From Nitrospinota bacterium (GTDB taxonomy: Bacteria; 2-12-FULL-45-22; JACOWJ01): DNA of 20,868 nt. The notes beneath the pieces were generated by a model. It ran no database searches. It saw only the letters and a program-made list of their open reading frames with translations, and was not told the DNA's origin. Made by a program: the position numbers and the translations under genes. Positions 1-20,868 of this stretch are shown here, piece by piece. How positions within the stretch are numbered: the first letter of the stretch is position 1; each line of letters starts with the position of its first letter. Where the stretch lies: assembly GCA_016176845.1 (NCBI GenBank), contig JACOWJ010000004.1:1-20868 (forward strand), read 5' to 3'.

Positions 1-21
1 CCATGAGCTCAACGATCAGCA

Positions 22-355: not shown

Positions 356-395
356 GGACAATCCTTCTGCGTTACTGGAAATGGACGCCCTAATA

Positions 396-1625: not shown

Positions 1626-3045
1626 CTTCCTCTTCCACTGGCAACATCAGAACAGAAAGGGTTGAATTTTTTAGGATATAAAAAGGCGCATAGGGTTTAA
1701 GCAAAGAATTCTTTCTCCCTTTCTTATAAGCCATGACAATTAAATCATAATTATTGGCAATTTTGAGAATTTCCTTTACCGGATTGCCTTCCAGTTGCTT
1801 GTAATCTATGCTGAGCTTATATATTGAAGACATGTCATTTACAAGGTCTCTCAAGGTTCTTTTCTCTTGCTCATCTCTATTGCTTGCAAGGAAAGAAGGA
1901 GGATGAACGCTAACTGCGGAGATTTTCGAGGTTAAGGGGCGCGCGATATCGATGCCCAGCTCAATGACCTTCAACGGAGTTTCAGAGGTGAGAATCACCA
2001 GGATATTCTCATACGGGAAGGTACCCCTACTGATCAGGATGGGGATAGATACTTGATCGATAATCTTTACAAGGGAGAATGGCGGTGAAAGAAATCCTAA
2101 AAACCTCTTCTTAGGAAAAGGAAGAACTAAAAATCCATAAGAGTCCTGTTGTAACAAGGCTTCCATGGATTTCTCAACAGGCATTTTACCTTCTTTGATA
2201 GAGTACCTGATCTGATGCTCCGCGCACTTATCAATGGCCTTCTCTTTTGCATCATTCACTATAAAGATATGCACCTCTCCAGCCCTTGAGTTTTTGGTAA
2301 GATAGAGCCCTTCATCCATGGCCTCAAGGGATGGGAATATAAAGATCAGAGGGTGCGAGCCGAACTGAAGGGGAAATTGGGGTACCCCGGACTGGAAGAT
2401 TTCAGCCAGGGTCGAGAGGAAAGCGGGATCTCCGATGAGCAAAGCTTTATCGCCCACTTCGATGGTAGATTTCCCTCCTGGGATGACCAGCCTTCCATTC
2501 CGATATATGGCTCCGATAAGCCATCCTTCCGGCTTGATCTGATTTAATGGCCTGCCCACCAGGGGAGATCGGGCAAGGACATTGACTTCTACAATCTCTC
2601 CCTGCCCCAATCCCACACTGATCGCCTTGACTTTGCCCTTATCCAGCAGGCTTTCCAGGATATTGGAAATGGACAATGGGATATTTACCCCATGTACGCC
2701 GACCTCATCATATTTTTGTGCGTTTTCTTTATAATTAATCAATGCGATAAGGTGATTTATGCCATAAATCTCTTTGGCCAACCTACAGGTTTCCAGGTTA
2801 ACTTCATCGCTTTTGGTCGTAGCGATTAAGCAGTGAACTTGATCGGTAATAGCCCGCTTCAAAGTAATGGAGCTGGTACTATCCCCGAATATCTTTATGA
2901 TCCCCTCATAGGCTTCATCTTTTTCAGTGGATTCGGCTCTTCCAGGATCGATATCTATCCCAATAACCTCCCATAAGTCCTTCAATTTTATGGCCAATTC
3001 AGATCCTATACGGCCTAATCCAACGATGACGATTTTTGGTTTCAT
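1615..3045 (-). CDS. TrkA-N/RCK_C regulatory protein with UspA-like C-terminal region
   Basis: The 476-residue soluble protein starts with a Rossmann NAD-binding RCK domain: IVIVGLGRIGSELA (GxGxxG) followed by the acidic end of strand 2, IGIDID. An RCK_C (TrkA-C) domain follows at about residues 145-220, with RSPLVGRPLNQI and STIEVGDKALLIG. Residues ~230-470 resemble two universal-stress-like units. The second opens at NILVILTSE and ends in DLIVMAYKKG...STLSVLMLP, a degraded version of the Usp nucleotide-binding loop. RCK domains gate K+ channels and CPA2 antiporters in response to nucleotides. The 11-bp overlap with the antiporter gene makes that protein the likely partner. The ribosome site before the ATG is weak (only a GTGGA-like stretch). 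The Usp tail could sense ATP or AMP, but this is inferred. Confidence 0.82.
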   Translation of the reverse strand: MKPKIVIVGLGRIGSELAIKLKDLWEVIGIDIDPGRAESTEKDEAYEGIIKIFGDSTSSITLKRAITDQVHCLIATTKSDEVNLETCRLAKEIYGINHLIALINYKENAQKYDEVGVHGVNIPLSISNILESLLDKGKVKAISVGLGQGEIVEVNVLARSPLVGRPLNQIKPEGWLIGAIYRNGRLVIPGGKSTIEVGDKALLIGDPAFLSTLAEIFQSGVPQFPLQFGSHPLIFIFPSLEAMDEGLYLTKNSRAGEVHIFIVNDAKEKAIDKCAEHQIRYSIKEGKMPVEKSMEALLQQDSYGFLVLPFPKKRFLGFLSPPFSLVKIIDQVSIPILISRGTFPYENILVILTSETPLKVIELGIDIARPLTSKISAVSVHPPSFLASNRDEQEKRTLRDLVNDMSSIYKLSIDYKQLEGNPVKEILKIANNYDLIVMAYKKGRKNSLLKPYAPFYILKNSTLSVLMLPVEEEDGS

Positions 3046-3386
3046 TTTTTATCCACTTTGGGAAGCTCTTTGAGTTAAGTGATTTTGAAGACCCCCTTCA
3101 GGAGCTCCTATGGGGTAGATCGACCTTGAAAGAAGGTGAAATCCTGATCTCTCCAGGGATATCTTACTCGGTGGGGTAAAAAAGGGCAAGTCCACCGAAA
3201 GGCTTGGGGGCCTCCCGTTGCGAAATACCACAGCTGCGGGAAATTGCATCGATGACCGGAACCCCTTGAGATTCCTGCCTTTCACCGTCTCTCCTTCGCG
3301 GGACCGTTGCAGAGTGCCACAATCCCGATCCGATCTCTGCCCCCCGGTCTCCCGTCTTCCCCTTGAAGAAAGCGGTTTTAAAGGAA
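3046..3386. other. Intergenic stretch, no supported gene
   Basis: This is the space between the divergent TrkA-like gene and the sigma-54-type promoter at 3387. Open frames exist on the minus strand (one spans 3049-3549) but lack a recognisable domain and a ribosome site, are rich in Arg, Ser and Pro, and run through the palindrome at 3508-3632. I treat them as chance. The stretch must hold the promoter for the TrkA-like gene, but I could not pick a convincing one. Confidence 0.5.
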
Positions 3387-3402
3387 TGGCATGATCCTTG
3401 CT
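3387..3402 (+). promoter_or_regulatory. Candidate sigma-54 (RpoN) promoter
   Basis: TGGCATGATCCTTGCT matches the -24/-12 consensus (TGGCAC-N5-TTGCW): GG and GC are separated by exactly 10 bp, and a T-rich run follows. Transcription would begin near 3413 and read rightward into the small ORF at 3439 and probably the membrane-protein gene at 3710. No enhancer-binding-protein gene is in the window. One such match by chance in 20 kb is possible, so the call rests on position as well as on sequence. Confidence 0.55.
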
Positions 3403-3438
3403 TTTTCTGGGAGCGAGCATCGCCTGGAGGAGAACGGG

Positions 3439-3588
3439 GTGCTGACAAGAAGATGCGGAACATGGCCCATCGCCATGTTCTTTCTGGTTTTGGGGCAGTT
3501 TCGAGGTCATTCGCGTCAATTTAAGGTTTACTCCTGGGAGAGCGGCCATCCCCGGATCAAGTCCGGGGCAGGCCTGGCCGCTCTTTGA
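3439..3588 (+). CDS. Small ORF whose C-terminal half is a palindromic repeat; possible remnant
   Basis: It starts at GTG with an excellent ribosome site (GGAGGAG at 3426-3432, 6-nt spacing), inside the same 13-mer that precedes the lipoprotein gene at 35. It encodes 49 residues: a basic opening (LTRRCG), a hydrophobic stretch (WPIAMFFLVLG, about residues 9-19) and then sequence contributed by the palindrome beginning at 3508 (residue 24 onward). The ORF sits about 26 nt after the predicted sigma-54 start. The simplest reading is a small membrane protein whose original 3' end was replaced by the repeat. I recognise no family, and it may be a non-functional remnant. Confidence 0.3.
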   Translation: MLTRRCGTWPIAMFFLVLGQFRGHSRQFKVYSWESGHPRIKSGAGLAAL

Positions 3589-3632
3589 GGGCGTCCCCGC
3601 CCGCGTTCCCAGGGGTTAAGTTGACACGAATG
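3508..3632. repeat. 125-bp imperfect palindrome, MITE/REP-like
   Basis: The outer ends are CATTCGCGTCAATTTAA (from 3508) and the inverted CATTCGTGTCAACTTAA (reading back from 3632), differing at two positions. Inside is a second pair, a 10-bp perfect stem AGAGCGGCCA (3539-3548) with TGGCCGCTCT (3575-3584). At the centre is a 7-bp stem CCCCGGA (3550-3556) with TCCGGGG (3562-3568) around a TCAAG loop. CTCCTGGGA / TCCCAGGGG segments also pair between the arms. Nested arms of this size without an ORF suggest a small non-autonomous mobile or REP-type element. No target-site duplication was identified with confidence. Confidence 0.65.
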
Positions 3633-3709
3633 GTTTCGATCTCCTGGAAGATCGCGCAAGGGGCTTGTTGGTTCAGGAGGTGGCCATCGAAAAGGGCTGG
3701 AGGGAAAGG

Positions 3710-3880
3710 ATGAGCACACGAAAACAGAAACGGGAAAGCCTCGAAGAAGAAACCGCCGCAGTGAGCGCTGACCCGCAGGAAGCCGAAAAGCAGGAGAAGC
3801 CGATCTCAGGCATCTGGATCCTTCTGGGTCTGCTTCTTCTCATTGTGCTCATATCCATCGTCGAAATCCTGTTCTTTTAG
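3710..3880 (+). CDS. Small single-pass membrane protein, unknown function
   Basis: It encodes 56 residues. A charged N-terminal half of about 30 residues (STRKQKRESLEEE, later EAEKQEKP) is followed by one strongly hydrophobic helix, GIWILLGLLLLIVLISIVEI, at about residues 34-53, ending in LFF. The frame stays open upstream to a TTG at 3665. The ATG at 3710 is preferred because GGAGGGAAAGG stands directly before it. No signal cleavage site is visible, so it is probably a tail-anchored inner-membrane protein with a cytoplasmic charged domain. It lies downstream of the candidate sigma-54 promoter, with the palindrome in between. I do not recognise a family. Confidence 0.6.
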   Translation: MSTRKQKRESLEEETAAVSADPQEAEKQEKPISGIWILLGLLLLIVLISIVEILFF

Positions 3881-4028
3881 CCGGGTTGCGCGTGGGAACG
3901 GGAGGAGGGGTAAATTTTGGCTTTGAGATTATCGTAGAAGGTTTATGGAGCCGGAAGGGTCGAAAACGTTCGGGACCACCACTTCAATCAGATTCATTTC
4001 TGTCTTGACATGGAGGAGGAGACTGACT

Positions 4029-4697
4029 ATGAGTAATAAGGGGATCGTCGGCGTAATCAAAGGTTTGTTCCGTAAAAATCAAGAAGAGAATATCTTAAGA
4101 CCCGTAAAATCTCCGGTAGAGCAGAAAATTATTGTAAAGGAGAGAAGCGTCCAGGAATGGATTGCTGAATGGGAAAGTTTTTATCAGGATGTTTTCGGGA
4201 TTAGAGCAGACTTTTCAAATCTGAAAATTCCAGAGAAAGAGTCCGGTTTCAACCGGCTTATCATTATGGCCGCAGGTATGACACCTCAACAGACCTTTGA
4301 TAAATGTGAAAAATTATTTCCTTGCTGGAGATGGACTAGCGATAGCTTTGATAATATTGTAACTTCCTCACAAAGAACCAGCAAAAACGGCGCCTACGCC
4401 GTTTGGGTTCGTGATTGCGTGGAGGCAGACGAGGATTTGAAAAACCAATCCGCAGAGGTAATCAAATCGAAAAAAATAACTACCGAGACTTTTGAAGAGC
4501 GTTGCGTACAGGAATTAAAATATTTTAAAGAGACCGGGGAACATTTAGACATGGAAAATATTACTTTTTGTACCGGTTCGCGTTACTCGAATGGGGAGGT
4601 GCCGTGCATTAGCTGGGTCACGGGCATGTTTAGGATCCGCTCGGCCCGTCCCGACCGCGCCGGCCGTGAGCTCCGTTCTCGTCGTGTAGTTGCCTGA
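4029..4697 (+). CDS. Uncharacterised protein with possible hypervariable (DGR-type) C terminus
   Basis: The start at 4029 (MSNKGIVGV) is chosen over the frame opening at 3945 because GGAGGAGGAGA lies just before it. The product is 222 residues. The body (about residues 35-190) is soluble and AT-rich in codon use, with WIAEWESFYQDVFG, LIIMAAGMTPQQTF, FPCWRWT, NGAYAVWVRD and ELKYFKETGEHLDMENIT. I recall similar hypothetical proteins from uncultured bacteria, with a shared end of the form GSRxSDGxVPxVxW...PD...LRxRxVVS; this is memory, not a search. The end here fits: GSRYSNGEVPCISW ... RPDRAGRELRSRRVVA. From about 4577 the composition turns sharply GC-rich and many codons are NNC. No function is assigned; the variable-region idea is under findings. 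Confidence 0.6.
   Translation: MSNKGIVGVIKGLFRKNQEENILRPVKSPVEQKIIVKERSVQEWIAEWESFYQDVFGIRADFSNLKIPEKESGFNRLIIMAAGMTPQQTFDKCEKLFPCWRWTSDSFDNIVTSSQRTSKNGAYAVWVRDCVEADEDLKNQSAEVIKSKKITTETFEERCVQELKYFKETGEHLDMENITFCTGSRYSNGEVPCISWVTGMFRIRSARPDRAGRELRSRRVVA
4577..4694 (+). other. Candidate diversity-generating-retroelement variable region
   Basis: This is the last ~39 codons of the preceding gene. Codons at positions that vary in my recollection of the family are largely NNC (tac, tgc, agc, gtc, ggc, atc, cgc, gcc), the pattern left when adenines of AAC codons in a template repeat are mutagenised. The flanking framework (GSR, VP, W, PD, LR) is kept and the frame runs intact to the stop. Neither a template repeat nor a reverse transcriptase is in the window, so the call is tentative. 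Confidence 0.3.
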
Positions 4698-4732
4698 CAG
4701 GATCGACAGAAAGCGTCTCCGAGGATGATGAG

Positions 4733-5881
4733 ATGGAATGGATCTACCAGCTGGCCTGGATCCTGATCGCAGCGAAGATCGCCGGGGAGCTATCCCGGAG
4801 GGTGGGCCTGAGCCCCATGATCGGGGAGATTTTGGCCGGGGTCTTTTTGGGTGGCTCATTTTTGGGCCTGTTGGAGGAAGGCCCCATGCTGGACCTTTTT
4901 GCCGAGATGGGCATCATCTTCATGATCTTCCTGATCGGCCTGGAGACGAACGTAGAGCATATCCTCAAGGTGGGAAGGATCGCCACGCTGGTGGCGGTAG
5001 CCGGCATCGCCGTCCCTTTCGTGGGGGGCTTTCTCTTGGGAGAGATCGCCGGCTATCCCCGGTCCACCTCTCTCTTCCTGGGAAGCATCCTCACGGCCAC
5101 CAGCGTGGCGGTCACCACCCGGGTCTTCATGGACCTGGGCAAGGTCAGGGCCCGGGTCTCCCAGACGATCCTGGCGGCGGCAATCGTGGATGACGTGTTG
5201 GGTCTGCTGGTGCTGAGCCTGGTGCTGGCCTTTACCGGCAGCGGGGAGGAAAACCCGGGAAGCCGGCTGGGGATGGCGGCCCTCTTTCTCCTCGTCATCT
5301 CCCCCCTGGGCTGGTGGGCCATCCCCCGGCTCATCCGGTTGGCCCGGAAGATCGAGGAGGAAGGGGCGATCTTCGCCCTGACCGTAGGCCTTACCTTCCT
5401 CTTCGCATATCTCTCTCATGAGGCAGGACTGGCCAGCCTCATCGGGGCGTTCGTCATGGGGTTGATCCTGGGGCAGGTCCAGGAATCGCAACAGCTCTCC
5501 CTCGATATCCGTCCCCTCTACTACTTCATGGCCCCCATCTTCTTTGTCTCCATCGGCGTCCATGTGGACTTTGAGGCGTTTTACCGGTCCCTGGGCTTTG
5601 CGGTCATCCTGAGCCTGCTGGCGATCGTCACCAAGCTTTTAGGGGGGATGATCGGGGCCTTGGGGGGCGGATATACCCTGAAAAAGGGCCTCCTGATCGG
5701 GGTGGGCATGATTCCCCGGGGAGAGGTAGGTTTGATCGTAGCCGGGATCGGGATAAAACTGGGACTGATCGATAAGGCCATCTTCGCGGCCTCCGCGTTT
5801 ATGTGTCTGCTGACCGTCCTGGTTCCTCCGTTATTCATCAAGCCTTTGGCGAAAGCGTTTCCGGAAGAGCTGGAGGATTGA
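4733..5881 (+). CDS. CPA2-type cation/proton antiporter with Asp-Asp motif
   Basis: The 382-residue polytopic membrane protein has the classic Na+/H+ exchanger (NhaA-fold, CPA2) signature. Near the N terminus are RRVGLSPMIGEILAGVFLG and FMIFLIGLETNV. TSVAVTTRVFMDLG marks the unwound helix, and AAAIVDDVLGLLVL carries the ion-binding pair Asp153-Asp154. Later come APIFFVSIGVHVDF and GMIPRGEVGLIVAGIGI, the latter with the conserved basic/acidic helix-10 residues. It exchanges Na+ or K+ for H+ across the inner membrane; the Asp pair is typical of electrogenic Na+/H+ members. Length is close to the minimal transporter core, with no RCK tail. The CBS gene 2 bp downstream is the probable regulatory partner. 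A GAGGAT site stands about 8 nt before the ATG. Confidence 0.9.
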   Translation: MEWIYQLAWILIAAKIAGELSRRVGLSPMIGEILAGVFLGGSFLGLLEEGPMLDLFAEMGIIFMIFLIGLETNVEHILKVGRIATLVAVAGIAVPFVGGFLLGEIAGYPRSTSLFLGSILTATSVAVTTRVFMDLGKVRARVSQTILAAAIVDDVLGLLVLSLVLAFTGSGEENPGSRLGMAALFLLVISPLGWWAIPRLIRLARKIEEEGAIFALTVGLTFLFAYLSHEAGLASLIGAFVMGLILGQVQESQQLSLDIRPLYYFMAPIFFVSIGVHVDFEAFYRSLGFAVILSLLAIVTKLLGGMIGALGGGYTLKKGLLIGVGMIPRGEVGLIVAGIGIKLGLIDKAIFAASAFMCLLTVLVPPLFIKPLAKAFPEELED

Positions 5882-9963: not shown

Positions 9964-11163
9964 TTAAAATCCTGCCAGCTTGCGCATGCGCAGCCGGAGG
10001 GCGTTCAAGTGGATGAAGCCGGTGGCCTGTCCCTGGTCGTAAACCGAATCCTCCTCGAAGGTAGCCAGGGAGCTGCTGTAAAGGGATCTCTCCGCCTTTC
10101 GGCCGACCACCGTACAGTTGCCCTTATAAAGCTTCACCCGGGCCCGCCCCGTGACGTCCTTCTGGGCCTCATCGATCGCTACCTGGAGCATCTCCCGCTC
10201 CGGGGAGAACCAATAGCCATAGTAGACCAGCTGGGCGTACCGCGGCATCCAGGAATCCCGTAAATGCATCACCTCCCGGTCCATGGTGATCGACTCCACG
10301 GCCCGGTGGGCCGCATGAAGGATCGTGCCCCCGGGGGTCTCGTAGACTCCGCGCGACTTGATGCCTACGTAACGGTTCTCTACCATGTCCACCCGCCCGA
10401 TGCCGCACTGCCCCCCCAATTGATTGAGAAGTTGCAGGAGCTCGGCCGGGCTCTTCTTGACCCCATTCAAGGAGACCGGATTCCCCCGCTCGTAATCGAC
10501 CTCCAGGTAGATGGGCTCGTCGGGCGCCTCCTCCGGGGAGGAGGTCCAAAGATACATCTCGGCTGGCGGCTCCATCCACGGGTCCTCCAAGATGCCCCCC
10601 TCGTAACTGATGTGAAGCAGGTTGCGGTCGCAGCTGTAGGGGCGCTCCTGAGTCACCGGCACCGGGATAGACCGCGTCTGCGCGTATTCGATCAGGGCCT
10701 GCCGCGAGTTGAGGTCCCATTCCCGCCAGGGTGCGATGATGCGCAGCTGCGGGCGGAGGGCCTGATAGGTGAGCTCGAAGCGAACCTGGTCGTTTCCCTT
10801 GCCCGTTGACCCGTGAGCCACCGCATCGGCCCCGACCTTTTGGGCCAGATCGACCTGAGCCTTGGCGATGAGGGGCCGGGCAATGGAGGTCCCCAGCAGG
10901 TAGTGGCCTTCGTAAACCGCATTGGCCCGCAGCATGGGGAAAACGTACTCCCGGATGAACTCCTCCCGCAGGTCCTGGATAACCACCTCACCGGCGCCCG
11001 TCCGCCAGGCCCGCTTTCGGATCAGCTCCAGATCCTCCCCCTGGCCCAGGTCGGCGAGAAAGGCGATCACTTCACAATCGTATCTCTCTTGCAGCCACTT
11101 CAAAATTACCGAGGTATCCAGCCCCCCGGAGTAAGCCAACACCACTTTTTCGATCTTCTTCAT
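9964..11163 (-). CDS. argG: Argininosuccinate synthase
   Basis: It ligates citrulline and aspartate using ATP, the penultimate step of arginine synthesis. The 399-residue length is normal. The ATP pyrophosphatase P-loop [10 protein letters not shown] is at residues 9-18. Further signature parts are [29 protein letters not shown] (citrulline/aspartate binding) and [17 protein letters not shown]. It follows argF by 13 bp and is clearly part of the argDFG transcript. argH, often next in such clusters, is replaced here by moaC. Confidence 0.97.
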
Positions 11164-11176
11164 GATTGTTCACCCA

Positions 11177-12172
11177 TCAGCATGGTTCACCTATCAGCCA
11201 CTCTAAGATTGCCTTCTGCACATGGAGCCGGTTTTCTGCCTGATCGAGGACGAGGGAGCTTTCCCCTTCCAGCACCTCGTCGGTGATCTCCTGACCGCGG
11301 TGGGCCGGCAGACAATGCAGGATATAAGCCGGCTTTTGGGCCTCCTCCACCAGCCGGCGGTTCACCTGGTACCCTTGAAAGGCCTGCAGTCGTTGGGCTT
11401 CCTCGGCCTCCTGTCCCATGCTGGCCCATACGTCGGTATAGATCACATCGGCTCCCCGGACGGCCTGGACGGGATCCTGGAGGATCTCGATGGAAGAGCC
11501 GCTCTTTTGGGCCAGCTCCAGGGCCCGGATCACCACCTCCTCTCGGGGCTGGTAACCCGGGGGGGAGGCAATCGCTAAGTGAAACCCCAGCTTGCCGGCG
11601 GCCGCCAGCCAGGAATGGGCCACATTATTGCCGTCGCCCACATAGGCCACCTGGACCCCCCGGTACGTTCCCCGATGTTCCTGGATGGTGAAGAGATCCG
11701 CCAGGATCTGGCACGGATGGTAGAGATCGGAGAGGCCGTTGACCACGGGGATGGTGGCATAGCGCGCCCACTCCTCGAGCTCCTCGTGGGCGAAGGTCCG
11801 GATTACCAACCCGTCCAGGTAGCGGGAGAGAACCCGGGCGGAATCCTTGACGCTCTCACCCCGTCCCAACTGCAGCTCGCTGCTGCTCAGAAAAAGGGAA
11901 TGTCCGCCCAGATCGAGGATCCCCACCTCGAAAGAGACCCGGGTGCGGGTGGAGGGCTTGCGGAAGATCAGGCCCACCGTTTTGCCTTCCAGCGGGCGAA
12001 AGGGCAGAGGGACGGAGGGGCAAGGGGGCGGAGGAACTGCTCCTTTGTTTCCCTGCTCCTTTGCTCCCCTGCGCCCCTGCTCCCTATGGGCCTTCAGGAA
12101 GCCGGTCCGCTGGAGGATTCGCTCCAGCTCCTCACTGCTCAGGTCAAAAATGGTTAAAAAGTCCCGTTTCAT
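11177..12172 (-). CDS. argF: Ornithine carbamoyltransferase with an in-frame low-complexity insertion
   Basis: It transfers carbamoyl from carbamoyl phosphate to ornithine to make citrulline. Both hallmark sites are intact: the carbamoyl-phosphate loop KPSTRTR at residues 72-78, and the ornithine-side HCLPAHRG near the C terminus; YHPCQILADL is also present. The start ATG overlaps the argD stop (ATGA, 12169-12172), implying translational coupling. Between helix 1 (ERILQRTGFLKAH) and the usual LEGKTVGLIF strand, residues ~30-58 are a Gly/Arg/Gln/Pro-rich insert where the family has a linker of about ten residues. The DNA of the insert contains a 16-bp tandem repeat. The insert lies near the surface of the first domain, so the enzyme is probably still active. 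Confidence 0.95.
   Translation of the reverse strand: MKRDFLTIFDLSSEELERILQRTGFLKAHREQGRRGAKEQGNKGAVPPPPCPSVPLPFRPLEGKTVGLIFRKPSTRTRVSFEVGILDLGGHSLFLSSSELQLGRGESVKDSARVLSRYLDGLVIRTFAHEELEEWARYATIPVVNGLSDLYHPCQILADLFTIQEHRGTYRGVQVAYVGDGNNVAHSWLAAAGKLGFHLAIASPPGYQPREEVVIRALELAQKSGSSIEILQDPVQAVRGADVIYTDVWASMGQEAEEAQRLQAFQGYQVNRRLVEEAQKPAYILHCLPAHRGQEITDEVLEGESSLVLDQAENRLHVQKAILEWLIGEPC
12037..12084. repeat. Three imperfect 16-bp tandem copies inside argF
   Basis: CTGCTCCTTTGTTTCC (12037), CTGCTCCTTTGCTCCC (12053) and CTGCGCCCCTGCTCCC (12069) follow each other without gaps. On the coding strand they read as the Glu-Gln-Gly/Arg-Gly insert of ArgF. A C-rich, G-rich continuation runs to about 11999. 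Confidence 0.8.
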
Positions 12173-13359
12173 AAGATTTTAAAGGTCTCATCCAACGCAG
12201 CCACCAACCGATCCACCTCCCGCTCGGTGATCACCAGGGGCGGGACGAAGCGAAGCACCCGGTCGGCGGTGCAGTTGATCAGGAAACCGCGTTCCCGGCA
12301 GGCATCCACCATGGGGCCCCCAGGAACCTCCAGCTCCATCCCGATCATCAGCCCCTTGCCCCGAACCTCCTTCACGAAGGGATATTGACCCTTGAGCTCC
12401 TCGAGCTGGGCCAGGAAATAGCTCCCCACCTTGCGGCAGTTCTCCAACAGCTCCCCGCGCAGCAGCACCTGGACCGCAGCCACCGCCGCGGCGCTCGCCA
12501 GGGGATTGCCTCCGAAGGTGGAAGCATGGCTGCCGGGCGTGAAGGCCCCCATGACCTCCTCGCCGGCCAGCATGGCCCCCATGGGGACCCCTCCGGCCAG
12601 GGCCTTGGCCAGCGTCATGATGTCCGGTGGGGCCTGAAAGGCTTCGTAGGCGAAGAGGGTGCCCGTGCGCCCCATGCCGGTCTGGACCTCGTCGTAGAGG
12701 AGCAACAGGCCCTGGCGATCGCACAAGCGCCTCAGGCCCGGCAGGTAGTCCGGAGGGGGGATCTTGACCCCTCCCTCTCCCTGGATCGGCTCCACCAGGA
12801 TGGCGCAGGTTTGGGGGGAGATGGCGGCCTCGATGGCGGCCAGGTCTCCGAAGGGGAGGTGACGGAAGCCCGGCAGCAGCGGGGCGTAACCCTCCCAGAA
12901 CTTCGACTGACCGGTGGCGGACAGGGTGGCCATGGTGCGGCCGTGGAAGGAGCCCTCCATCACCAGGATCTCGGACCTTCCCTCCCCATGACGCAGGTAG
13001 GAATAACGGCGAGCCAGCTTGATGGCCGCCTCGTTCGCCTCGGCGCCGCTGTTGCAGAAAAAGGCGCGATCGGCGAAGGAGCTCTCCACCAAAAGCTTGC
13101 CCAGGTGCGCTTGCGGCTCGATATGGTAAAGGTTGGAGACGTGGAGGAGCTGCCCGGCCTGCCTGCGAATCGCCTCCACCACTTCGGGGTGGCAGTGGCC
13201 CAGGTTGTTGACGGCGATCCCGGAGAGGAAGTCGCAATACTCCTTCCCCTCTGAGTCCCATACCCGAGCGCCCTCCCCCCGGACGAGGGCCACCGGGGCT
13301 CGCTTATACGTGGGGGCCAGGTACCTCTCCGACCACTGGAACAGTTCTTCAGTATTCAT
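12169..13359 (-). CDS. argD: Acetylornithine aminotransferase
   Basis: This PLP enzyme converts N-acetylglutamate semialdehyde to N-acetylornithine. Started at 13359 (MNTEELFQWSERYLAPTYKR) it has 396 residues, the usual length. The frame is open back to 13425, but that longer start has no ribosome site and overlaps the small membrane-protein gene, whereas AAGGGGAG stands 10 nt before 13359. Class-III aminotransferase features are present: NSGAEANEAAIKLAR for the cofactor phosphate, ILVEPIQGEGG, LLYDEVQTGMGRTG with the PLP-contacting Asp, and the Schiff-base lysine in TLAKALAGGVPMGA. It is first of the argD-argF-argG run. Confidence 0.96.
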   Translation of the reverse strand: MNTEELFQWSERYLAPTYKRAPVALVRGEGARVWDSEGKEYCDFLSGIAVNNLGHCHPEVVEAIRRQAGQLLHVSNLYHIEPQAHLGKLLVESSFADRAFFCNSGAEANEAAIKLARRYSYLRHGEGRSEILVMEGSFHGRTMATLSATGQSKFWEGYAPLLPGFRHLPFGDLAAIEAAISPQTCAILVEPIQGEGGVKIPPPDYLPGLRRLCDRQGLLLLYDEVQTGMGRTGTLFAYEAFQAPPDIMTLAKALAGGVPMGAMLAGEEVMGAFTPGSHASTFGGNPLASAAAVAAVQVLLRGELLENCRKVGSYFLAQLEELKGQYPFVKEVRGKGLMIGMELEVPGGPMVDACRERGFLINCTADRVLRFVPPLVITEREVDRLVAALDETFKIL

Positions 13360-13385
13360 CCGAATCGGTCTCCCCTTGGCTAAGA

Positions 13386-13493
13386 TCACCGCCGCCGCTT
13401 CTTTCTTTCCTGGTAATCCCTCCATAAGGTAGGGCCAGCCATGATAAGAGCCGTCAAAATAATCAAAGCGTACATGAGCACAAACTCAAACAT
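13386..13493 (-). CDS. 35-residue membrane protein upstream of argD
   Basis: The reading is MFEFVLMYALIILTALIMAG followed by PTLWRDYQERKKRRR. One hydrophobic helix (residues 3-20) is followed by a strongly basic tail, which by the positive-inside rule places the C terminus in the cytoplasm. A purine-rich site (GAGGGAAGG) precedes the ATG by about 9 nt. It lies 25 bp after the 55-residue membrane-protein gene and 26 bp before argD, all on the same strand. No family is recognised. The clean single-helix-plus-basic-tail design and the tight spacing support it being real. Confidence 0.55.
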   Translation of the reverse strand: MFEFVLMYALIILTALIMAGPTLWRDYQERKKRRR

Positions 13494-13714: not shown

Positions 13715-16024
13715 TCAAGCTTTCAATTTCGGCCGCAGGAGCGAGAAGAGGGCGGGAACCAGGCTGACGGCCATCAGGGCGTTCAGGGCCATCAGGAGGC
13801 TCAACAGGATCGCCATCTCCCCCTGGAAACGGATATCGGAGAGGGCGTACCAGAAGATGATCCCTCCCACCAGGCAGGCGGCGGTGAAGCTCACCGCCAT
13901 GCCGGTCGTGGAGACGGCCCGGTGGATGGCCCCGTCCAGGTCTCCCCCCAGACGATGGGTTTCCTGCCGCATCCGGTCCACGATGTAGACGGCGTAATCC
14001 ACCCCCACGCCGATCCCGATGCCCGTCACGGGCAGGGTATTGACGTTCATCCCGATCCCTTTGAGGACCATGTAGGCGACACAGATCAATGTGGCCAGCA
14101 ACAGCGGAAACATAATGAGCACCGTGACAGACAGAGAATAGTAACTGAGGAAGACGCACACGAAGACCATGCCCAGCACCAGATAGAGGGTCCGCTGATT
14201 GGCCTTTTCGATCATCTCGTTGACCGCGGCCAGGACCCCGATCTCCCCGCCGGCCAATTTATACCGGATCCCGTCCACCGGATGGGAGTCGATGAACTCC
14301 CGGGTCCGCTTCAGGACCCGCTGGATGGTGTCGCTTTGGGTATCCTTGTAATAGATCGTGACAATCGACTCTCGGGACTGATAGTCCATGTAGGTGGAGA
14401 GGATCCGGGGAACGGGGGCGGCAACCTCATAAATGAAAAGGAGGTTGCCCGCATCCTTCTGGGTCTCGGGGATATACTCCCACTTGGGATCGAAGTAATG
14501 CCAGACCATCTCCAGCGATTTGGCCAGGATGGCCAGGCTGCGGGCCCCGCCGGCCTTGGGGTCTTGCAGCAGTTCGTCTTGCAATTCCTCCATCCCGCTC
14601 AACACCCGCGGCTCCTTGATAATCTGGGGCCGGTTGCCCGAAAAAATGACAGAGAAATGGTTGGTACCGGCGAAGCGGCGGTTGATCTCGGCGGCCGAGA
14701 CGTTGTAGTCGTGGTCGCGGTAGAGCAGGGGTGAGCCGGGGCTGTTATCCCCGATCACCAGGTGCGGGAAGAGTCCCAGCGAGAGGGATAGCAGGACGAG
14801 GGCGAGGCCCAGGATGGCCCAGCGGCTGCGCCGGCCCGTGCTCAGCCTCCCCATCCACCCCAGATAAGTCTGAAGCGCCCGGATCTTGTAACACGTCCGC
14901 TCCCGGGGCGCGGGCAGATAGGAGAGCAGGATCGGGCCCAGCAGCAAAACCGAAAAAGAGATGCTCATCGCCCAGAAGGAACAGAAGAAGGCCAGCTTGC
15001 GCATGATGGGGATGGACGCCACGGCGATGACGAAGATCCCCCCGGCATCCGTGATGATCCCGATCATCCCCGGCAGAAAGAGCGCTCCCATGGCGGCCAC
15101 GACCGAAGATTCCTTCTCCCCGCGCTCCTCGTACTCCTCGAGGTAGCGCTCGGTCAGCTGGACCCCATGGCTGATGCAGCGGGCGGTGATCAGCAGCGGG
15201 ACGACCAGCGTCAGGGGATCGAAGTTGTACCCCAGCATCCCCGTAAAGCCTAGACCCCAGATGGTGCTCACCACCCCGCCCACCATGGGGACCACCACCC
15301 CGACCAGCCGGCGGAAGTAGAAGACCAGCAGGAAGAGCAGGACGGCGATCGTGATGGCGAAGATCAGGAGCGTCTGAGGGTAGTAATGGGCGATCCAGCC
15401 GTAGAGCATGGGCTGGCCGGTGATGTAGATCTCGGTGTTCCCGTCTTCCAGTTCCCTCTCCAGCCGCTTGAGGTCGTCGAAGAGCTTCCTGTAGTCCACC
15501 CGTTGCTCGAAGAAGGCGGCGGTCACCAAAGCCCCCTTGCCATCGTAAGAGACCAGGCGGCCATAAACGGTATCGTTGCTGAAGCATTCCTCCCGGATGC
15601 GAGCCAACGCCTCCTTGGATTGCGGGGGTTTGGAGGGGAGCAGGGGGAGAGAGCGGATCTGCCCCTCGGGGGTAATCTTCAGCGTCCGGGTCCTCAGGTG
15701 GGCGATCGAGTCGATCTGGTTGTGGTTGACCCCCGGCAGGTACTCCATCCGGTCGGTCAGGAGCATGATCTTTTGGAGGGTCCGGGGGTTGAAGATATCC
15801 CCCTCTTTCACCATCAAGGCGATGCTCACCAGGTTGGCCCCCTCAAACTGGTCCCGAACCTGCTTGTGCACGCGGATGAAGGGGTGGTCGGGCAGGAGGT
15901 CATCGAAGGTGGGAAAGAGGGAGACCTGGAGGAGATAATAGAAAAAGGGGGTCGTTACCCCCAAGATGAGGAGCAAGACCCCCAGCCGATGTCGGATCGC
16001 AAACCGGGCAAAATTCGTCATCAT
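13715..16024 (-). CDS. RND/MMPL-family transporter, paralogue A
   Basis: The 769-residue inner-membrane protein has the RND layout. A first helix (12-34) is followed by a periplasmic domain (~35-215), a helix bundle (~217-370), helix 7 (~402-420), a second periplasmic domain (~421-609) and a final bundle (~610-762). The C-terminal half carries GIGIGVGVDYAVYIVDRM with Asp676-Tyr677, the proton-relay pair of MMPL proteins. The matching helix of the N-terminal half reads ITARCISHGVQLTERYLEE and lacks an acid. RND proteins of this type (MMPL, HpnN-like) move lipids or hydrophobic compounds using the proton gradient. It is divergent from the beta-propeller genes and strongly similar to the RND gene at 18581. 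Substrate unknown. Confidence 0.9.
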   Translation of the reverse strand: MMTNFARFAIRHRLGVLLLILGVTTPFFYYLLQVSLFPTFDDLLPDHPFIRVHKQVRDQFEGANLVSIALMVKEGDIFNPRTLQKIMLLTDRMEYLPGVNHNQIDSIAHLRTRTLKITPEGQIRSLPLLPSKPPQSKEALARIREECFSNDTVYGRLVSYDGKGALVTAAFFEQRVDYRKLFDDLKRLERELEDGNTEIYITGQPMLYGWIAHYYPQTLLIFAITIAVLLFLLVFYFRRLVGVVVPMVGGVVSTIWGLGFTGMLGYNFDPLTLVVPLLITARCISHGVQLTERYLEEYEERGEKESSVVAAMGALFLPGMIGIITDAGGIFVIAVASIPIMRKLAFFCSFWAMSISFSVLLLGPILLSYLPAPRERTCYKIRALQTYLGWMGRLSTGRRSRWAILGLALVLLSLSLGLFPHLVIGDNSPGSPLLYRDHDYNVSAAEINRRFAGTNHFSVIFSGNRPQIIKEPRVLSGMEELQDELLQDPKAGGARSLAILAKSLEMVWHYFDPKWEYIPETQKDAGNLLFIYEVAAPVPRILSTYMDYQSRESIVTIYYKDTQSDTIQRVLKRTREFIDSHPVDGIRYKLAGGEIGVLAAVNEMIEKANQRTLYLVLGMVFVCVFLSYYSLSVTVLIMFPLLLATLICVAYMVLKGIGMNVNTLPVTGIGIGVGVDYAVYIVDRMRQETHRLGGDLDGAIHRAVSTTGMAVSFTAACLVGGIIFWYALSDIRFQGEMAILLSLLMALNALMAVSLVPALFSLLRPKLKA

Positions 16025-16047
16025 TGGGCACCCCCGCTATTTTCCTC

Positions 16048-16075
16048 TTGACTCAACCGGAAATATTGTTATCAT
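16048..16075 (+). promoter_or_regulatory. Rightward promoter of the propeller/RND genes
   Basis: TTGACT (16048-16053), a 16-bp spacer and TATCAT (16070-16075) resemble a sigma-70 promoter. The -10 box lies inside the palindrome at 16066-16080. Transcription would start near 16082, giving a leader of about 150 nt. Confidence 0.6.
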
Positions 16076-16080
16076 AACAA
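16066..16080. promoter_or_regulatory. 15-bp palindromic operator candidate
   Basis: TTGTTATCATAACAA is a perfect palindrome with 7-bp arms around a central C. It covers the -10 boxes of both divergent promoters, so a dimeric repressor bound here would block both. No regulator gene is adjacent in the window. Confidence 0.6.
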
Positions 16081-16099
16081 AACTTTTCTTTCAACTCAA
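16071..16099 (-). promoter_or_regulatory. Leftward promoter of RND paralogue A
   Basis: On the minus strand, TTGAGT (16099-16094), a 17-bp spacer and TATGAT (16076-16071) form a promoter facing the RND gene that starts at 16024. Its -10 box shares the same palindrome as the rightward -10 box. The predicted start is near 16064, leaving a 40-nt leader. Confidence 0.6.
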
Positions 16100-16161
16100 C
16101 AGATATCCTGAGGAGCGAACCTGACGGTTCAGGCCCTACCGATAAAGGGTGGAGGGTTTTC

Positions 16162-16205
16162 GGGGCCCAAGTTGCCGGCCCTGGGAGGGGCCTTTAAATT
16201 TTTTT
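16162..16205 (+). terminator. Attenuator-like alternative hairpins in the leader
   Basis: GGCCCT (16177-16182) and GGGGCC (16187-16192) form a 6-bp stem (one G-T pair) with a GGGA loop, followed by TTTAAATTTTTTT. The same GGCCCT can instead pair with GGGGCC at 16162-16167. The two structures exclude each other, as in attenuators. Upstream, CCTGA-CGGT-TCAGG adds a small hairpin. The T tract is interrupted by AAA, so termination may be partial. Confidence 0.4.
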
Positions 16206-16230
16206 ATTAACCAAGGGGGGAAAGTAAGGG

Positions 16231-17325
16231 ATGTTTATGGCTGAGAGATTTGGATCGAAGAAAGGCAAATGGTTCCTATCCTTCGGCATCGGGTTTTTTA
16301 TCGCCCTGGGAATGCTGAGGGGTCCGCTGGGGCCTCCGAGCCAGGGGGCCGAGGCCAAGGATCCTCCTCTTCCGAAGAACGGGCTGCAGCAGGCCTCCTC
16401 CCTCATCACCGACCGGGACAACTTTTACGGGGTCAACGCGGTGGACAGGGATCATGCCTGGGTCGTGGGCTATTGGGGCAAGATCCTCCACACCGACGAC
16501 GGGGGGAAGACCTGGCAGCTCCAGAAGAGCCCCACCCGGGATCCCCTCTTCAGCGTATCCTTCGCTGACCTCCAGCGCGGCGTCATCACGGGTCGGGACG
16601 GCGCCCTGTTGTTTACCGAGAATGGGGGCAAGACCTGGAAGGCCCTCCAAAGCCCTAAGAAGGTCCACCTCATCTCCGTGACTCACTCAGACCCACAGAA
16701 TTTCTGGGCGGTGGGCGATTTCGGCACCATCCTCCATAGCGACGATGGGGGGAGGACCTGGAGGGACGAGTCCCCTCAGGAAGATACGATCCTGAATATG
16801 GTCTATTTCTTCGACGCCCAGCATGGCTGGATCGTAGGGGAGTTCGGCAAGATCCTCCAAACCGCCGATGGGGGCAAGAGCTGGACGCCTCAGACCAACC
16901 TCATCGGGGTGTACAAGGATCCCGAGATGACCCAGTTCGGTGTCTATCTGTACGCGGTGGGCTTCTCCGACCTCAGCCATGGCTGGGCCGTAGGACAGAC
17001 GGGCACCATCCTTTATACCGAGGATGGCGGCAACACCTGGACGAACACCCCCGTCGAGAATACCCAAAACACCACCCAGACCCTGTTCGGTATCGCCCAG
17101 GGCAAGGGTAAGGCCTTCGCCGTGGGCTCCGTCGGGACGGTCCTGGCCTCCCACGCCAGCCCACCCAACAGCTGGATGCTAAGAAGCGAACTGGCAATCT
17201 ACTCCTGGCTGCGGGGGATCCATTTCTCCGATCCGGACCATGGATGGATGGTCGGGGGAAGGGGCACCGTCTTCAAGACGGAGAATGGCGGCAACAGCTG
17301 GAAACCGATCGTGCCTTCTCGTTAA
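16231..17325 (+). CDS. Exported YCF48-type Asp-box beta-propeller
   Basis: The 364-residue protein starts with a basic segment and hydrophobic helix (about 13-30), then a signal-peptidase-like GAEA-KD near residue 42, so it is probably periplasmic. It carries Asp-box repeats of the form S/T-x-D/N-G-G-x-T/S-W at residues 88, 129, 170, 211, 263 and 350. The first four are spaced exactly 41 residues apart, and each is preceded by G(K/A/T)IL or similar and a GWxVG strand. This is the YCF48/BNR propeller seen in photosystem II assembly factor HCF136/Ycf48 and in many non-photosynthetic bacteria, where it often accompanies RND genes. A photosystem role is not implied. ATG at 16231 and ATG at 16237 are both possible; a GGGGGGAAAGTAAGGG tract precedes the first. 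Confidence 0.85.
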   Translation: MFMAERFGSKKGKWFLSFGIGFFIALGMLRGPLGPPSQGAEAKDPPLPKNGLQQASSLITDRDNFYGVNAVDRDHAWVVGYWGKILHTDDGGKTWQLQKSPTRDPLFSVSFADLQRGVITGRDGALLFTENGGKTWKALQSPKKVHLISVTHSDPQNFWAVGDFGTILHSDDGGRTWRDESPQEDTILNMVYFFDAQHGWIVGEFGKILQTADGGKSWTPQTNLIGVYKDPEMTQFGVYLYAVGFSDLSHGWAVGQTGTILYTEDGGNTWTNTPVENTQNTTQTLFGIAQGKGKAFAVGSVGTVLASHASPPNSWMLRSELAIYSWLRGIHFSDPDHGWMVGGRGTVFKTENGGNSWKPIVPSR

Positions 17326-17336
17326 GGGTCAGGGAT

Positions 17337-17412
17337 TAGGAATTAGGGATTAGGGATTAGGGGCTGGTTAAGAAGGACGTTCGCCAATCTCTAGCCCCTG
17401 GCCCCTGGCCCC
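17337..17412. repeat. Low-complexity GATTAGG / CCCCTGG repeats
   Basis: The 108-bp gap between the propeller genes contains short tandem copies of GGATTAG(G) at 17337-17363, then a spacer, then CCCCTGG copies at 17395-17412. AGGGGCT (17359-17365) and AGCCCCT (17393-17399) can pair as a 7-bp stem. Similar TTAG/CCCCTAAC sequence lies between moaC and argG (9874-9896), so this looks like a dispersed low-complexity family. Confidence 0.6.
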
Positions 17413-17433
17413 TCGAAAAAAAGGGGATCCGTC

Positions 17434-18411
17434 ATGAAGAGAGCAACCAAACTGCTTCTATCGATCGTGTTCGCGGTGGCCTTCTTCTCTTGCGAAAGGC
17501 CGCCCACGGACCAGGTAAACGTCGTAGTCCCAGACCCCGAGAAGCCCGAGGTGGTTTACCTGGGGCTCAGCCGCGGGGTCTATAAGAGTACCAATAGCGG
17601 GAAGAGATGGGAGGCCGTCAACAGGGGGATGGAATACGCGAGAGCGATGTCCCTGGCCTTTGGACCGAAGGGCTCCAATCTCCTTTATGCCGGGACGAAC
17701 AAGGGCGTCTACAAGAGCGCCAACCGGGGAGAAAGCTGGCAGCCCATCAACCAGGGAATCGAATATATCACCGTCCTGGCCCTGACTTTGGAGCCCGGGC
17801 AGTCCGGGGTGATCTATGCCGGGACGAACAAAGGGCTTTACAAGAGCACCGACGATGGGAAGAGCTGGCATTCCATCCAATCGGGGGTCGAGCGGCGACG
17901 GGTGAACAGTTTCATCCGGGTTCGCCAGGGCTCGGATGCGCTTTACGCCGGCAGCCAGGTGGGGCCTTTTAAGCGCACCGACGGGGAGAACTGGCAGGGG
18001 GCCGCACATGGGATCGAGGGCTACGCCGCCTTTGTCTTTGCGGTAGACTCCAAGGGGACCCTTTACACCGGGACCGACCGGGGGGGGTTCAAAAGCACCG
18101 ACGGCGAGAATTGGGAGATGCTGGGCAAGGAGTTGGAAAACATCCAGGTGATGGCCCTCGCCCTGAACCCCAAACAAGGCAAGATCTATGCCGGAACCGA
18201 CCATGGCCTCCAGATCAGCACGGATGGAGGCAAGACCTGGAAGGTGGCGACCGGCACCCCATTGGAGAGCATCCCCATCCTCTCACTCGTCGTGGACCCG
18301 CGGAATCCCGAAATGGTCTATGCCGGCACCGATCGAGGTTTCTTCCGCAGCACAGACGGAGGAGTCAAGTGGAAAGAGAGCAACAAGGGGCTGCCCACTA
18401 TCCTCGACTAG
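17434..18411 (+). CDS. Lipoprotein Asp-box (BNR/sortilin-like) beta-propeller
   Basis: The 325-residue product has a short basic start and a hydrophobic stretch ending in the lipobox FFSC (Cys20, followed by Glu), so it is a lipoprotein facing the periplasm. It contains seven Asp-box repeats, with the boxes near residues 52, 95, 138, 181, 221, 262 and 306; the first four are spaced 43 residues apart. Each repeat has the pattern VYAGTNKGLYKSTDDGKSW. The fourth and fifth boxes are shortened (TDGENW). Seven repeats fit one complete propeller. It is co-directional with the YCF48-type gene and the following RND gene, which suggests a role as periplasmic partner of the transporter. Ligand unknown. 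Confidence 0.85.
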   Translation: MKRATKLLLSIVFAVAFFSCERPPTDQVNVVVPDPEKPEVVYLGLSRGVYKSTNSGKRWEAVNRGMEYARAMSLAFGPKGSNLLYAGTNKGVYKSANRGESWQPINQGIEYITVLALTLEPGQSGVIYAGTNKGLYKSTDDGKSWHSIQSGVERRRVNSFIRVRQGSDALYAGSQVGPFKRTDGENWQGAAHGIEGYAAFVFAVDSKGTLYTGTDRGGFKSTDGENWEMLGKELENIQVMALALNPKQGKIYAGTDHGLQISTDGGKTWKVATGTPLESIPILSLVVDPRNPEMVYAGTDRGFFRSTDGGVKWKESNKGLPTILD

Positions 18412-18474
18412 TTAGCTCAAAGCTCATAGCTCATAGGAGGAGAACCATGCAATGAGCTGCGAGCGATTAAATTA

Positions 18475-18496
18475 CCCCCCCTTACGAAGGGGGGGG
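18475..18496 (+). terminator. C7TT/AAG7 hairpin between lipoprotein and RND genes
   Basis: CCCCCCCTT (18475-18483) and AAGGGGGGG (18487-18495) form a 9-bp stem with an ACG loop, followed by GTTCTT. It could be an intrinsic terminator or an mRNA-stabilising hairpin. The weak T tract and the co-directional downstream gene favour partial read-through. Confidence 0.5.
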
Positions 18497-18580
18497 TTCT
18501 TCGCTGAAAATGGAAATCCTATACCATGAACTTATTTGGATGGCCAAGCCTGATCTCATCACTGCGTAGGAGAAGCGCTC

Positions 18581-20868
18581 ATGAAATTCGCACAACTGGT
18601 AATGAGGCACCGCCTGATCGCCCTCTTGCTCATTCTCGGTTCTACCACTTTCTTGTTTACGAGAATGCTCCACGTGACCATCCGCACCTCCTTTGACGAG
18701 CTGCTGCCCCAGAAGCACCCCTTCATCCAGTTGCACAAAATGGTGCGCGAGAAGTTCGCCGGGGCCAACGTGGTCACCATGTCCCTGGAGGTCAAAAACG
18801 GGGACGTCTTCAACCCCGCCACGCTGGAAAAGATCAAGTACCTGACCGAGCAGCTCGACCTCGTCCCCGGCATCAACCACTACCAGGTGGAGTCGATCGC
18901 CCACATCAAGGTCCGCAACATCCGCACCACGCTGGAAGGGATGGTCCGCTCCATGCCCCTCCTCCCCGAGGAAGTCCCCACGTCCAAGACAGAGCTCGAC
19001 CAGATCAAGCGGGATTGCTACTCCAACGAGACGGTCTACGGGCGGCTGGTCTCTTTCGATGGGAAGTCGGCCCTGATCTCCGGGGCCTTCTTCGAGCACA
19101 TGCTCAACTACCCCGTCATCTTCCAGCGGCTGCGGCAGATGCGAAGAGACGTGCAGGACGAGAACCACGTGCTCTACATCAGCGGCCAGCCCATGCTCTA
19201 TGGCTGGATCTATTACCATTATATTTACAACTCCAAGATCCTGTGGGGGCTCTCCAGCCTGACGACGCTGGGATTGACCATGATCGTCTTGTTCAGCCTC
19301 CTGATCTTTTACTTCCGTCGCATGGCCGGGGTGGTCGTCCCCATGACGGGGGCGGTGATCAGCGCCATTTGGGGAATCGGCTTCGCCGGGCTCGCCGGAT
19401 ACGACTTTGACCCCCTCATCCTGATCGTCCACCTGCTGGTCACGGCCCGCTGCATTAGCCACTCGGTCCAGATGACCGAGCGGTATCTCGAGGAGTACGA
19501 GGCCACCGGGGACAAGGTGAAGTCCGCCACCAAGTCCATGGGGGACCTCTTCATCCCGGGGTCGATCTCCGTGGTCACGGATGCCCTGGGGATTTACGTG
19601 GTCTCCTTCGCCAGCATCCCCATCATGCACCGACTGGCCTTCTTCAACACCGCCTGGGGGATGAGCATCATCTTCTCCGTGCTGATCCTGAGCCCTATCC
19701 TGCTATCCTTCCTACCGGCCCCGCGCAAGCGGGAGCGCTACGTGGTAAAGCCGGTGGAGAGATACCTCCATTTCATGGCCCGGCTGGCCACGGGCCCGAC
19801 CAGCCGCTGGGTCATCGTGGGCATCTCAGGGGTTGCGCTCATCGCCAGCTATATTTACTCCACCAACATCATCGTGGGCGACACCCGGCCCGGCTCGCCG
19901 CTGCTGTGGCCCGACCACGATTACAACTTCTCCTCCCGCAAGATCAACGAGCGCTTCGCGGGGACCAACCACCTCTACATCATCTTCGATGGCACTCAGA
20001 ACGATGCCATCAAGGACCCCTACGTCCTCTCGACCATGGACCGGTTGGGGGAGTATATGATGCAAAATCCTGCCGCCGGCGGAGCCTTCTCCATCGCCAC
20101 CATGGCCCGGACGATCAACAAGATGTACCATTACGAAGACCCGGTCTGGGGGATGATCCCAGCGACCCCGGCGGATGCGGGGGGTTTCTTCTTCCAGTAT
20201 GAGATCGGAGCGCCCATCCCCCGGATCCTCTCGTCCTATATGGATCCCCAGGGCAAACAGGCTAACATGGCCATCTACTATAAGGACACCAAGGTGGAGA
20301 CGATCAACGATGCCATCCACCGGGCCGAAGCCTTCATCCGGGACAACCCCCTCAAAAACGTCAAGTACCTGCTGGCGGCGGGGCTGATGGGGATCCTTTA
20401 CGCCACCAACGAGGAGATCGAATGGTCGAGCCACTGGAACGACATCATGGTCTTCGGGATGGTCTTCTTCTGCGTCTTCGTGAGCTACTTCTCCCTGGTC
20501 GCCAGCCTCCTGATCGTCACGCCACTTTTCCTGGCCAATCTGGTCTGCCTCTCCTACATGGTCTATTCGGACATCGGGATGAACATTAACACCCTGCCGG
20601 TGGCGTCGATCGGGGTGGGTGTCGGCGTGGACTACGCGGTCTACATCGTAGACCGGATGAAGAACGAGTATTTCGCCAGCGGGGAGAATATGGACGCCGC
20701 CATCACCAAGGCGATCACCACCACGGGGATGGCGGTGACCTTCACCGCCACCTGCCTGGTGGGGGGGATCATCTTCTGGTATCCCCTCTCGCCCATCCGA
20801 TTCCAGTGCGAGATGGCGATCCTGCTGAGCCTCTTGATGGCCATGAACGCCTTTATGGCCGTTACCCT
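18581..20868 (+). CDS. RND/MMPL-family transporter, paralogue B (3' end cut by window edge)
   Basis: The frame opens at ATG 18581 (MKFAQLVMRHRLIALLLILG), with AGGAG 8 nt before it, and stays open for 762 codons to the window edge. Compared with paralogue A (769 residues), only the last few residues are missing. The two are clearly paralogous throughout: FDELLPQKHPFIQLHKMVR, VFNPATLEKI, SGQPMLYGWI, FDPLILIVHLLVTARCISH and GINHYQVESIAHI all have close counterparts. The C-terminal half has IGVGVGVDYAVYIVDRM with the Asp-Tyr relay pair, and the N-terminal half again has ARCISHSVQMTERY without an acid. It should form an inner-membrane proton-driven exporter for a lipid-like or hydrophobic substrate, expressed with the two propellers upstream. 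Confidence 0.9.
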   Translation, partial: MKFAQLVMRHRLIALLLILGSTTFLFTRMLHVTIRTSFDELLPQKHPFIQLHKMVREKFAGANVVTMSLEVKNGDVFNPATLEKIKYLTEQLDLVPGINHYQVESIAHIKVRNIRTTLEGMVRSMPLLPEEVPTSKTELDQIKRDCYSNETVYGRLVSFDGKSALISGAFFEHMLNYPVIFQRLRQMRRDVQDENHVLYISGQPMLYGWIYYHYIYNSKILWGLSSLTTLGLTMIVLFSLLIFYFRRMAGVVVPMTGAVISAIWGIGFAGLAGYDFDPLILIVHLLVTARCISHSVQMTERYLEEYEATGDKVKSATKSMGDLFIPGSISVVTDALGIYVVSFASIPIMHRLAFFNTAWGMSIIFSVLILSPILLSFLPAPRKRERYVVKPVERYLHFMARLATGPTSRWVIVGISGVALIASYIYSTNIIVGDTRPGSPLLWPDHDYNFSSRKINERFAGTNHLYIIFDGTQNDAIKDPYVLSTMDRLGEYMMQNPAAGGAFSIATMARTINKMYHYEDPVWGMIPATPADAGGFFFQYEIGAPIPRILSSYMDPQGKQANMAIYYKDTKVETINDAIHRAEAFIRDNPLKNVKYLLAAGLMGILYATNEEIEWSSHWNDIMVFGMVFFCVFVSYFSLVASLLIVTPLFLANLVCLSYMVYSDIGMNINTLPVASIGVGVGVDYAVYIVDRMKNEYFASGENMDAAITKAITTTGMAVTFTATCLVGGIIFWYPLSPIRFQCEMAILLSLLMAMNAFMAVT

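What the first reader, a model, noticed from the sequence alone, without database searches (positions are those of the whole stretch)
13715..20868. Paired RND transporters with two periplasmic propellers as one envelope system
Two clearly paralogous MMPL/RND proteins flank an exported YCF48-type propeller and a propeller lipoprotein, under a shared divergent control region. RND proteins near YCF48-like proteins are known in other proteobacteria, but a double-RND, double-propeller set with one lipid-anchored propeller is unusual as far as I know. The propellers may dock to the large periplasmic loops of the RND pair, which could work as a heteromer. DUF1329 or DUF1302 outer-membrane partners would be expected just past the right edge.
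Basis: partly seen in the sequence, partly recalled or inferred. Interest (0 to 1): 0.75.

Follow-up and report, generated by a model that had tools for sequence, protein, structure and literature searches.

The report
Known RND–propeller transport cassette, extra neighbours
The four genes are real, but two of them are a new copy of a known envelope cassette for oily molecules (membrane pump plus periplasmic propeller), and the second pump and second propeller look like separate genes that happen to lie beside it in this one genome.

Summary
The genes are as described: RND-A (13715-16024, -), an exported YCF48-type propeller (16231-17325, +), a second propeller with a lipoprotein-like signal (17434-18411, +) and RND-B (18581 to the contig end, +). 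The RNDs are 54% identical. The window is the whole contig, so the right edge cannot be extended here.

YCF48 + RND-B is the core of a known cassette: DUF1302 barrel, DUF1329 (LolA-like), YCF48/COG4447, RND (AmeABCD of Castellaniella; related sets in aromatic-compound regulons, a benzene-degrading Desulfobacterota and P. putida).

The 'one double-RND, double-propeller system' is not supported. In that relative the RND-A orthologue is alone on another contig and the second propeller has no orthologue. In 60 other loci of this RND family there were 44 YCF48, 38 DUF1329 and 41 DUF1302 neighbours, but no second RND and no second propeller by profile.

The A/B duplication is old. Lipid-anchored cassette propellers are not unusual. 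Most likely RND-B + YCF48 move a hydrophobic compound across the envelope; RND-A is an orphan paralogue; the lipoprotein propeller is a lineage-specific insertion.

The parts
13715..16024 (-). RND-A: MMPL/RND transporter of 769 aa, paralogue of RND-B, probably an orphan
   Evidence: Pfam MMPL 108 bits; 54% identical to RND-B; orthologue G001:C174, 59% identical, sisters with support 95; AlphaFold model of an RND fold, nearest MmpL5/MmpL4, then HpnN and MmpL3
16025..16230 (.). Divergent intergenic region with promoter-like sites on both strands
   Evidence: + site 16048-16075 (TTGACT-16-TATCAT), - site 16099-16071 (TTGAGT-17-TATGAT); weak excess over shuffles; no Rfam match
16231..17325 (+). 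Exported YCF48-like propeller (COG4447/AmeC type), partner of RND-B
   Evidence: PSII_BNR 137 bits; solved Ycf48 structures at E 7e-24; orthologue directly upstream of RND-B in G001:C159, 50% identical
17434..18411 (+). Second Asp-box propeller with a lipoprotein-like signal, between YCF48 and RND-B; no orthologue in the relative
   Evidence: BNR/Sortilin matches; seven Asp-box-like motifs; propeller model; no orthologue in G001, G015 or G036; dispersed short repeats in both flanking gaps
18581..20868 (+). RND-B: MMPL/RND transporter, cut by the contig end
   Evidence: MMPL 57 bits; 65% identical to the G001:C159 RND, sisters with support 99, which is followed by DUF1329 and DUF1302

Best explanation
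YCF48 (16231-17325) and RND-B (18581 to end) are the inner-membrane/periplasmic half of an AmeABCD-type envelope cassette. Inferred mechanism: RND-B uses the proton gradient to move a hydrophobic molecule at the outer face of the inner membrane; the YCF48 propeller docks on its periplasmic domains; a LolA-like DUF1329 protein carries the molecule across the periplasm; a DUF1302 beta-barrel passes it through the outer membrane. The last two genes should lie just past the contig end or elsewhere in the genome. RND-A is an old paralogue that lies beside the cassette only in this genome so far; it may work alone like MmpL/HpnN or borrow cassette partners. The lipoprotein propeller is a lineage-specific insertion with no shown link to either pump. 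Shown: gene content, orthology, conservation of the cassette. Inferred: substrate class, direction of transport, docking.
For: Orthologous contig G001:C159 reads YCF48, RND-B, DUF1329 (165.7 bits), DUF1302 (53.8 bits), with a 151-bp gap and no gene between YCF48 and RND-B. In 60 loci of this RND family 44 have YCF48, 38 DUF1329 and 41 DUF1302; of 35 with at least 4 kb on both sides, 22 hold all four; none has a second strong RND or, by profile, a second propeller. Where a genome had two RND matches they lay on different contigs, in all 22 such genomes. The RND-A orthologue stands alone on G001:C174. A separate set YCF48, RND, outer-membrane-like protein, DUF1329 exists in the same genome on C35. 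Published: ameABCD deletion lowers monoterpene tolerance and raises Nile Red influx (PMC6394551); the four families are co-regulated with aromatic degradation (PMC6449761); a DUF1329/YCF48/MMPL cluster is highly expressed in a benzene degrader (PMC13101534).
Against: The DUF1329/DUF1302 genes are not seen beside RND-B in this genome because the contig ends; the best DUF1302 match to the relative's gene lies alone on C11 (371 bits). Only one relative of the same phylum was available, so loss of the pairing in G001 cannot be told from gain here. P. putida data (growth on Tween 20, PMC10866462) may point to uptake rather than efflux. Substrate unknown.
Confidence: 0.75

Rival explanations
1. All four genes form one system: RND-A and RND-B make a heteromer, and the soluble and lipid-anchored propellers dock to its periplasmic loops under a shared divergent promoter.
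For: Adjacency, divergent gap of 206 bp with promoter-like sites, 54% identity of the RNDs, both RNDs retained in both genomes of the order.
Against: RND-A orthologue is unlinked and without propeller in G001; no orthologue of the second propeller; no double set in 60 loci.
Confidence: 0.08
2. RND-A and RND-B are alternative pumps for different substrates that share the same YCF48, DUF1329 and DUF1302 partners.
For: Both belong to one four-member clade among cassette RNDs; RND-A's orthologue has no partner genes beside it; P. putida shows that cassette parts may be encoded apart (PMC10866462).
Against: No direct evidence for shared partners; solo RNDs of this family also occur (6 of 35 loci).
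Confidence: 0.3
3. RND-A works alone as an inner-membrane lipid or hopanoid transporter like HpnN/MmpL3.
For: Model resembles MmpL4/5, HpnN and MmpL3, and no partner genes lie next to its orthologue.
Against: Its close paralogue RND-B is cassette-bound; TIGR03480 HpnN scores 49.7 bits against a cut-off of 751.9.
Confidence: 0.3

Closest known systems
AmeABCD of Castellaniella defragrans (PMC6394551)
   Same: RND of COG1033/HAE3 type and an exported COG4447/YCF48 protein; DUF1329 and DUF1302 follow in the orthologous contig
   Different: Order of genes differs (AmeA DUF1302, B DUF1329, C COG4447, D RND); here a lipoprotein propeller sits between YCF48 and RND-B, a second RND lies opposite, and DUF1329/DUF1302 are not on the contig
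'Nanopod' cluster of benzene-degrading Desulfobacterota ORM2a (PMC13101534)
   Same: DUF1329, YCF48-related and MMPL genes in one cluster, with a porin-like protein
   Different: Also holds a universal stress protein gene; one RND, one propeller
P. putida PP_0765/PP_0766 with PP_2018/PP_2019 (PMC10866462)
   Same: DUF1302, DUF1329, a periplasmic protein and an RND needed together for growth on Tween 20; RND and PP_2018 predicted to interact strongly
   Different: Two separate loci; single RND and single periplasmic partner
MmpL4/MmpL5, MmpL3 and HpnN
   Same: Nearest solved bacterial folds to the RND-A model; TM10 Asp-Tyr pair kept
   Different: MmpL3 has Asp-Tyr in both halves; the present family has Ser/Arg-His in TM4

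Membership tests
AmeABCD-type cassette | RND transporter with two periplasmic loops, COG1033-like | tested here: met
   MMPL matches, RND fold model, placed among cassette RNDs
AmeABCD-type cassette | Exported COG4447/YCF48 protein next to the RND | tested here: met
   PSII_BNR 137 bits; same strand, upstream of RND-B, as in G001:C159; one gene lies between them here
AmeABCD-type cassette | DUF1329 gene in the cassette | tested here: inconclusive
   Contig ends inside RND-B; present after RND-B in G001:C159; no good match to that gene elsewhere in this 68%-complete assembly (best 29.9 bits)
AmeABCD-type cassette | DUF1302 outer-membrane gene in the cassette | tested here: inconclusive
   Contig ends; present in G001:C159; best match in this genome is on C11, away from any RND
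AmeABCD-type cassette | Needed for tolerance to or use of hydrophobic compounds | not testable with these tools
   No experiment possible; uncultured MAG
TIGR00921 HAE3 transporter (curated model) | Score above curated cut-off 351.9 | tested here: not met
   131.0 and 103.2 bits for RND-A and RND-B
HAE1 tripartite pump (AcrB type) | ACR_tran match above cut-off and adaptor (MFP) gene nearby | tested here: not met
   RND-A 25.2 bits against 28, RND-B no match; no adaptor among the window genes scanned
Ycf48 photosystem II assembly factor (NF010237) | Score above curated cut-off 326 | tested here: not met
   131.3 bits: same domain family, not Ycf48 proper

The most novel reading that the evidence does not exclude
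In this lineage an Ame-type cassette has become a dual-pump system in which two RND paralogues share or combine on one envelope conduit, with a second, lipid-anchored propeller as an extra adaptor.
Probability: 0.08. Interest if true: 0.6.

Novelty: new member of a known kind. Interest (0 to 1): 0.25.

Why it matters
It adds a sparsely sampled bacterial lineage to the range of the poorly understood RND/YCF48/DUF1329/DUF1302 cassette and suggests that the cassette core is stable while neighbouring pumps and propellers come and go. The census also brings out a family trait, a one-sided proton relay, that could be tested by mutation in P. putida.

Tried and rejected
A riboswitch or attenuator in the 206-bp gap: no Rfam match, fold not better than shuffles. 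The missing DUF1329/DUF1302 on a joining contig: DUF1302 found on C11 in mid-contig without DUF1329, so no join could be shown. C39 starts with a DUF1329-like ORF but matches the orthologue at only 22 bits. Relatives of the second propeller in viral contigs: none; in plasmids only generic propellers, best 40% identity. Two census loci flagged for an extra propeller by a loose motif: L120's is an oxidoreductase-like ORF by its sequence; L100's was not followed up.

Full report
What is there. The window is the complete contig C5 (20,868 bp) of a 1.53-Mb, 68%-complete assembly. The four ORFs of the finding are real. Pfam places P0001 and P0004 in MMPL, P0002 in PSII_BNR (YCF48) and P0003 among BNR/Sortilin propellers. 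RND-A and RND-B are 54% identical. RND-B runs off the contig after 762 codons, so nothing can be read to the right of it in this genome.

Relatives. The only other held genome of the phylum is G001, whose contigs correspond by length and position to the MAG named Nitrospinae bacterium RIFCSPLOWO2_12_FULL_45_22. It has clear orthologues of both RNDs: WIN_A pairs with G001:C174 (59% identity, tree support 95) and WIN_B with G001:C159 (65%, support 99), within a clade of support 100. The duplication is therefore older than the split of the two genomes.

Gene order. On G001:C159 the order is YCF48, RND-B, DUF1329, DUF1302; the Pfam scores of the three partners are 123, 166 and 54 bits. No gene lies between YCF48 and RND-B there. 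The RND-A orthologue on C174 sits among genes without a propeller, DUF1329 or DUF1302, and apart from the RNDs no window gene has a match on that 20-kb stretch. The second propeller has no orthologue in G001 (only a 34-bit partial match inside an 885-aa frame).

Census. A search of 395 genomes from the phylum that holds locus L042's genome gave 65 RND matches in 43 genomes; only the two best candidates per genome were scored. In all 22 genomes with two matches they were on different contigs. Around 60 of these matches, YCF48 was found in 44 loci, DUF1329 in 38 and DUF1302 in 41; none had a second strong RND and none a second propeller by profile. A looser Asp-box motif count flagged two loci; one is an oxidoreductase-like ORF, the other was not checked. 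So the cassette is common and the double set is not, within the limits of contig length and of the groups sampled.

Lipid anchors. A simple lipobox pattern fired for 11 of 44 census YCF48 proteins; at least two of those are false by eye and some clear signals were missed, so the number is rough. Clear cases such as L110, L113, L120 and L125 show that a lipid-anchored propeller beside an RND is ordinary in this family.

Same genome. C35 carries another set, YCF48, RND, a 623-aa outer-membrane-like protein without a Pfam match, and DUF1329. C60 carries YCF48 and RND. A DUF1302 protein most like that of G001:C159 (371 bits) lies alone on C11; it may be the missing partner or a paralogue.

Literature. 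AmeABCD of Castellaniella is DUF1302, DUF1329, COG4447 and an HAE3-type RND; its deletion lowers monoterpene tolerance, and the authors state that gene composition and order are conserved in the lineage (PMC6394551). The same four families are in regulons for aromatic compounds in Betaproteobacteria (PMC6449761); DUF1329, YCF48 and MMPL proteins are in a highly expressed cluster of a benzene degrader (PMC13101534); and DUF1302, DUF1329, a periplasmic protein and an RND, in two loci, are needed by P. putida for growth on Tween 20, where co-folding gave a strong RND/PP_2018 contact (PMC10866462). The direction of transport is not settled by these studies.

Structure. The second propeller folds alone as a beta-propeller (pLDDT 82.5) closest to GH74-type and BNR propellers, with Ycf48 further down the list. 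This is a generic fold and says nothing about function. The RND-A model (pLDDT 82.7) is closest to MmpL5/MmpL4, then HpnN and MmpL3. Complexes could not be predicted.

A family trait. In 81 RNDs of the family the TM10 relay pair is kept (Asp676 in 76, Tyr or Phe677 in 81), while the equivalent TM4 position (285) is never acidic and is followed by His in 76; Gln289 is invariant and Arg293 is in 80. The equivalence rests on aligning the two halves by their common Arg. In 14 of 81 another acidic residue lies nearby in TM4. MmpL3 has Asp-Tyr in both halves. Whether this has been described before was not searched.

Verdict. The YCF48/RND-B part and the DUF1329/DUF1302 prediction fit a known cassette. 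The claim of one double-RND, double-propeller machine is not supported. The finding is a new member of a known kind with lineage-specific neighbours.

Noticed in passing
RND-A residues 285-286 and 676-677 (window 13715-16024, -) and 80 relatives: The RND family keeps the TM10 Asp-Tyr relay pair but never has an acidic residue at the equivalent TM4 place (mostly Ser-His), so the proton relay looks one-sided.
   Followed up: partly
window 1-5000: G+C is 40-53% here against about 55-66% for the rest of the contig; the stretch holds CPA2-type antiporter and TrkA-like genes.
   Followed up: no
G000 (whole assembly): The assembly holds 14 DUF1329-profile matches and six RNDs of this family in 1.53 Mb, suggesting several hydrophobe-handling cassettes.
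   Followed up: partly
window 17326-17433 and 18412-18580: Both gaps around the second propeller carry short repeats (GGGATTAGG-type; AGCTCATAGCTCATAG-type) found at other places of the genome.
   Followed up: partly
window 9964-13425, -: Genes for a class-III aminotransferase, an ornithine carbamoyltransferase-type protein and argininosuccinate synthase (arginine synthesis) run in the same direction just downstream of RND-A (289-bp gap), so read-through is possible.
   Followed up: no
L075:6964-8961 (G000:C11): A DUF1302 protein close to the cassette's outer-membrane partner lies alone, away from RND and DUF1329 genes.
   Followed up: partly
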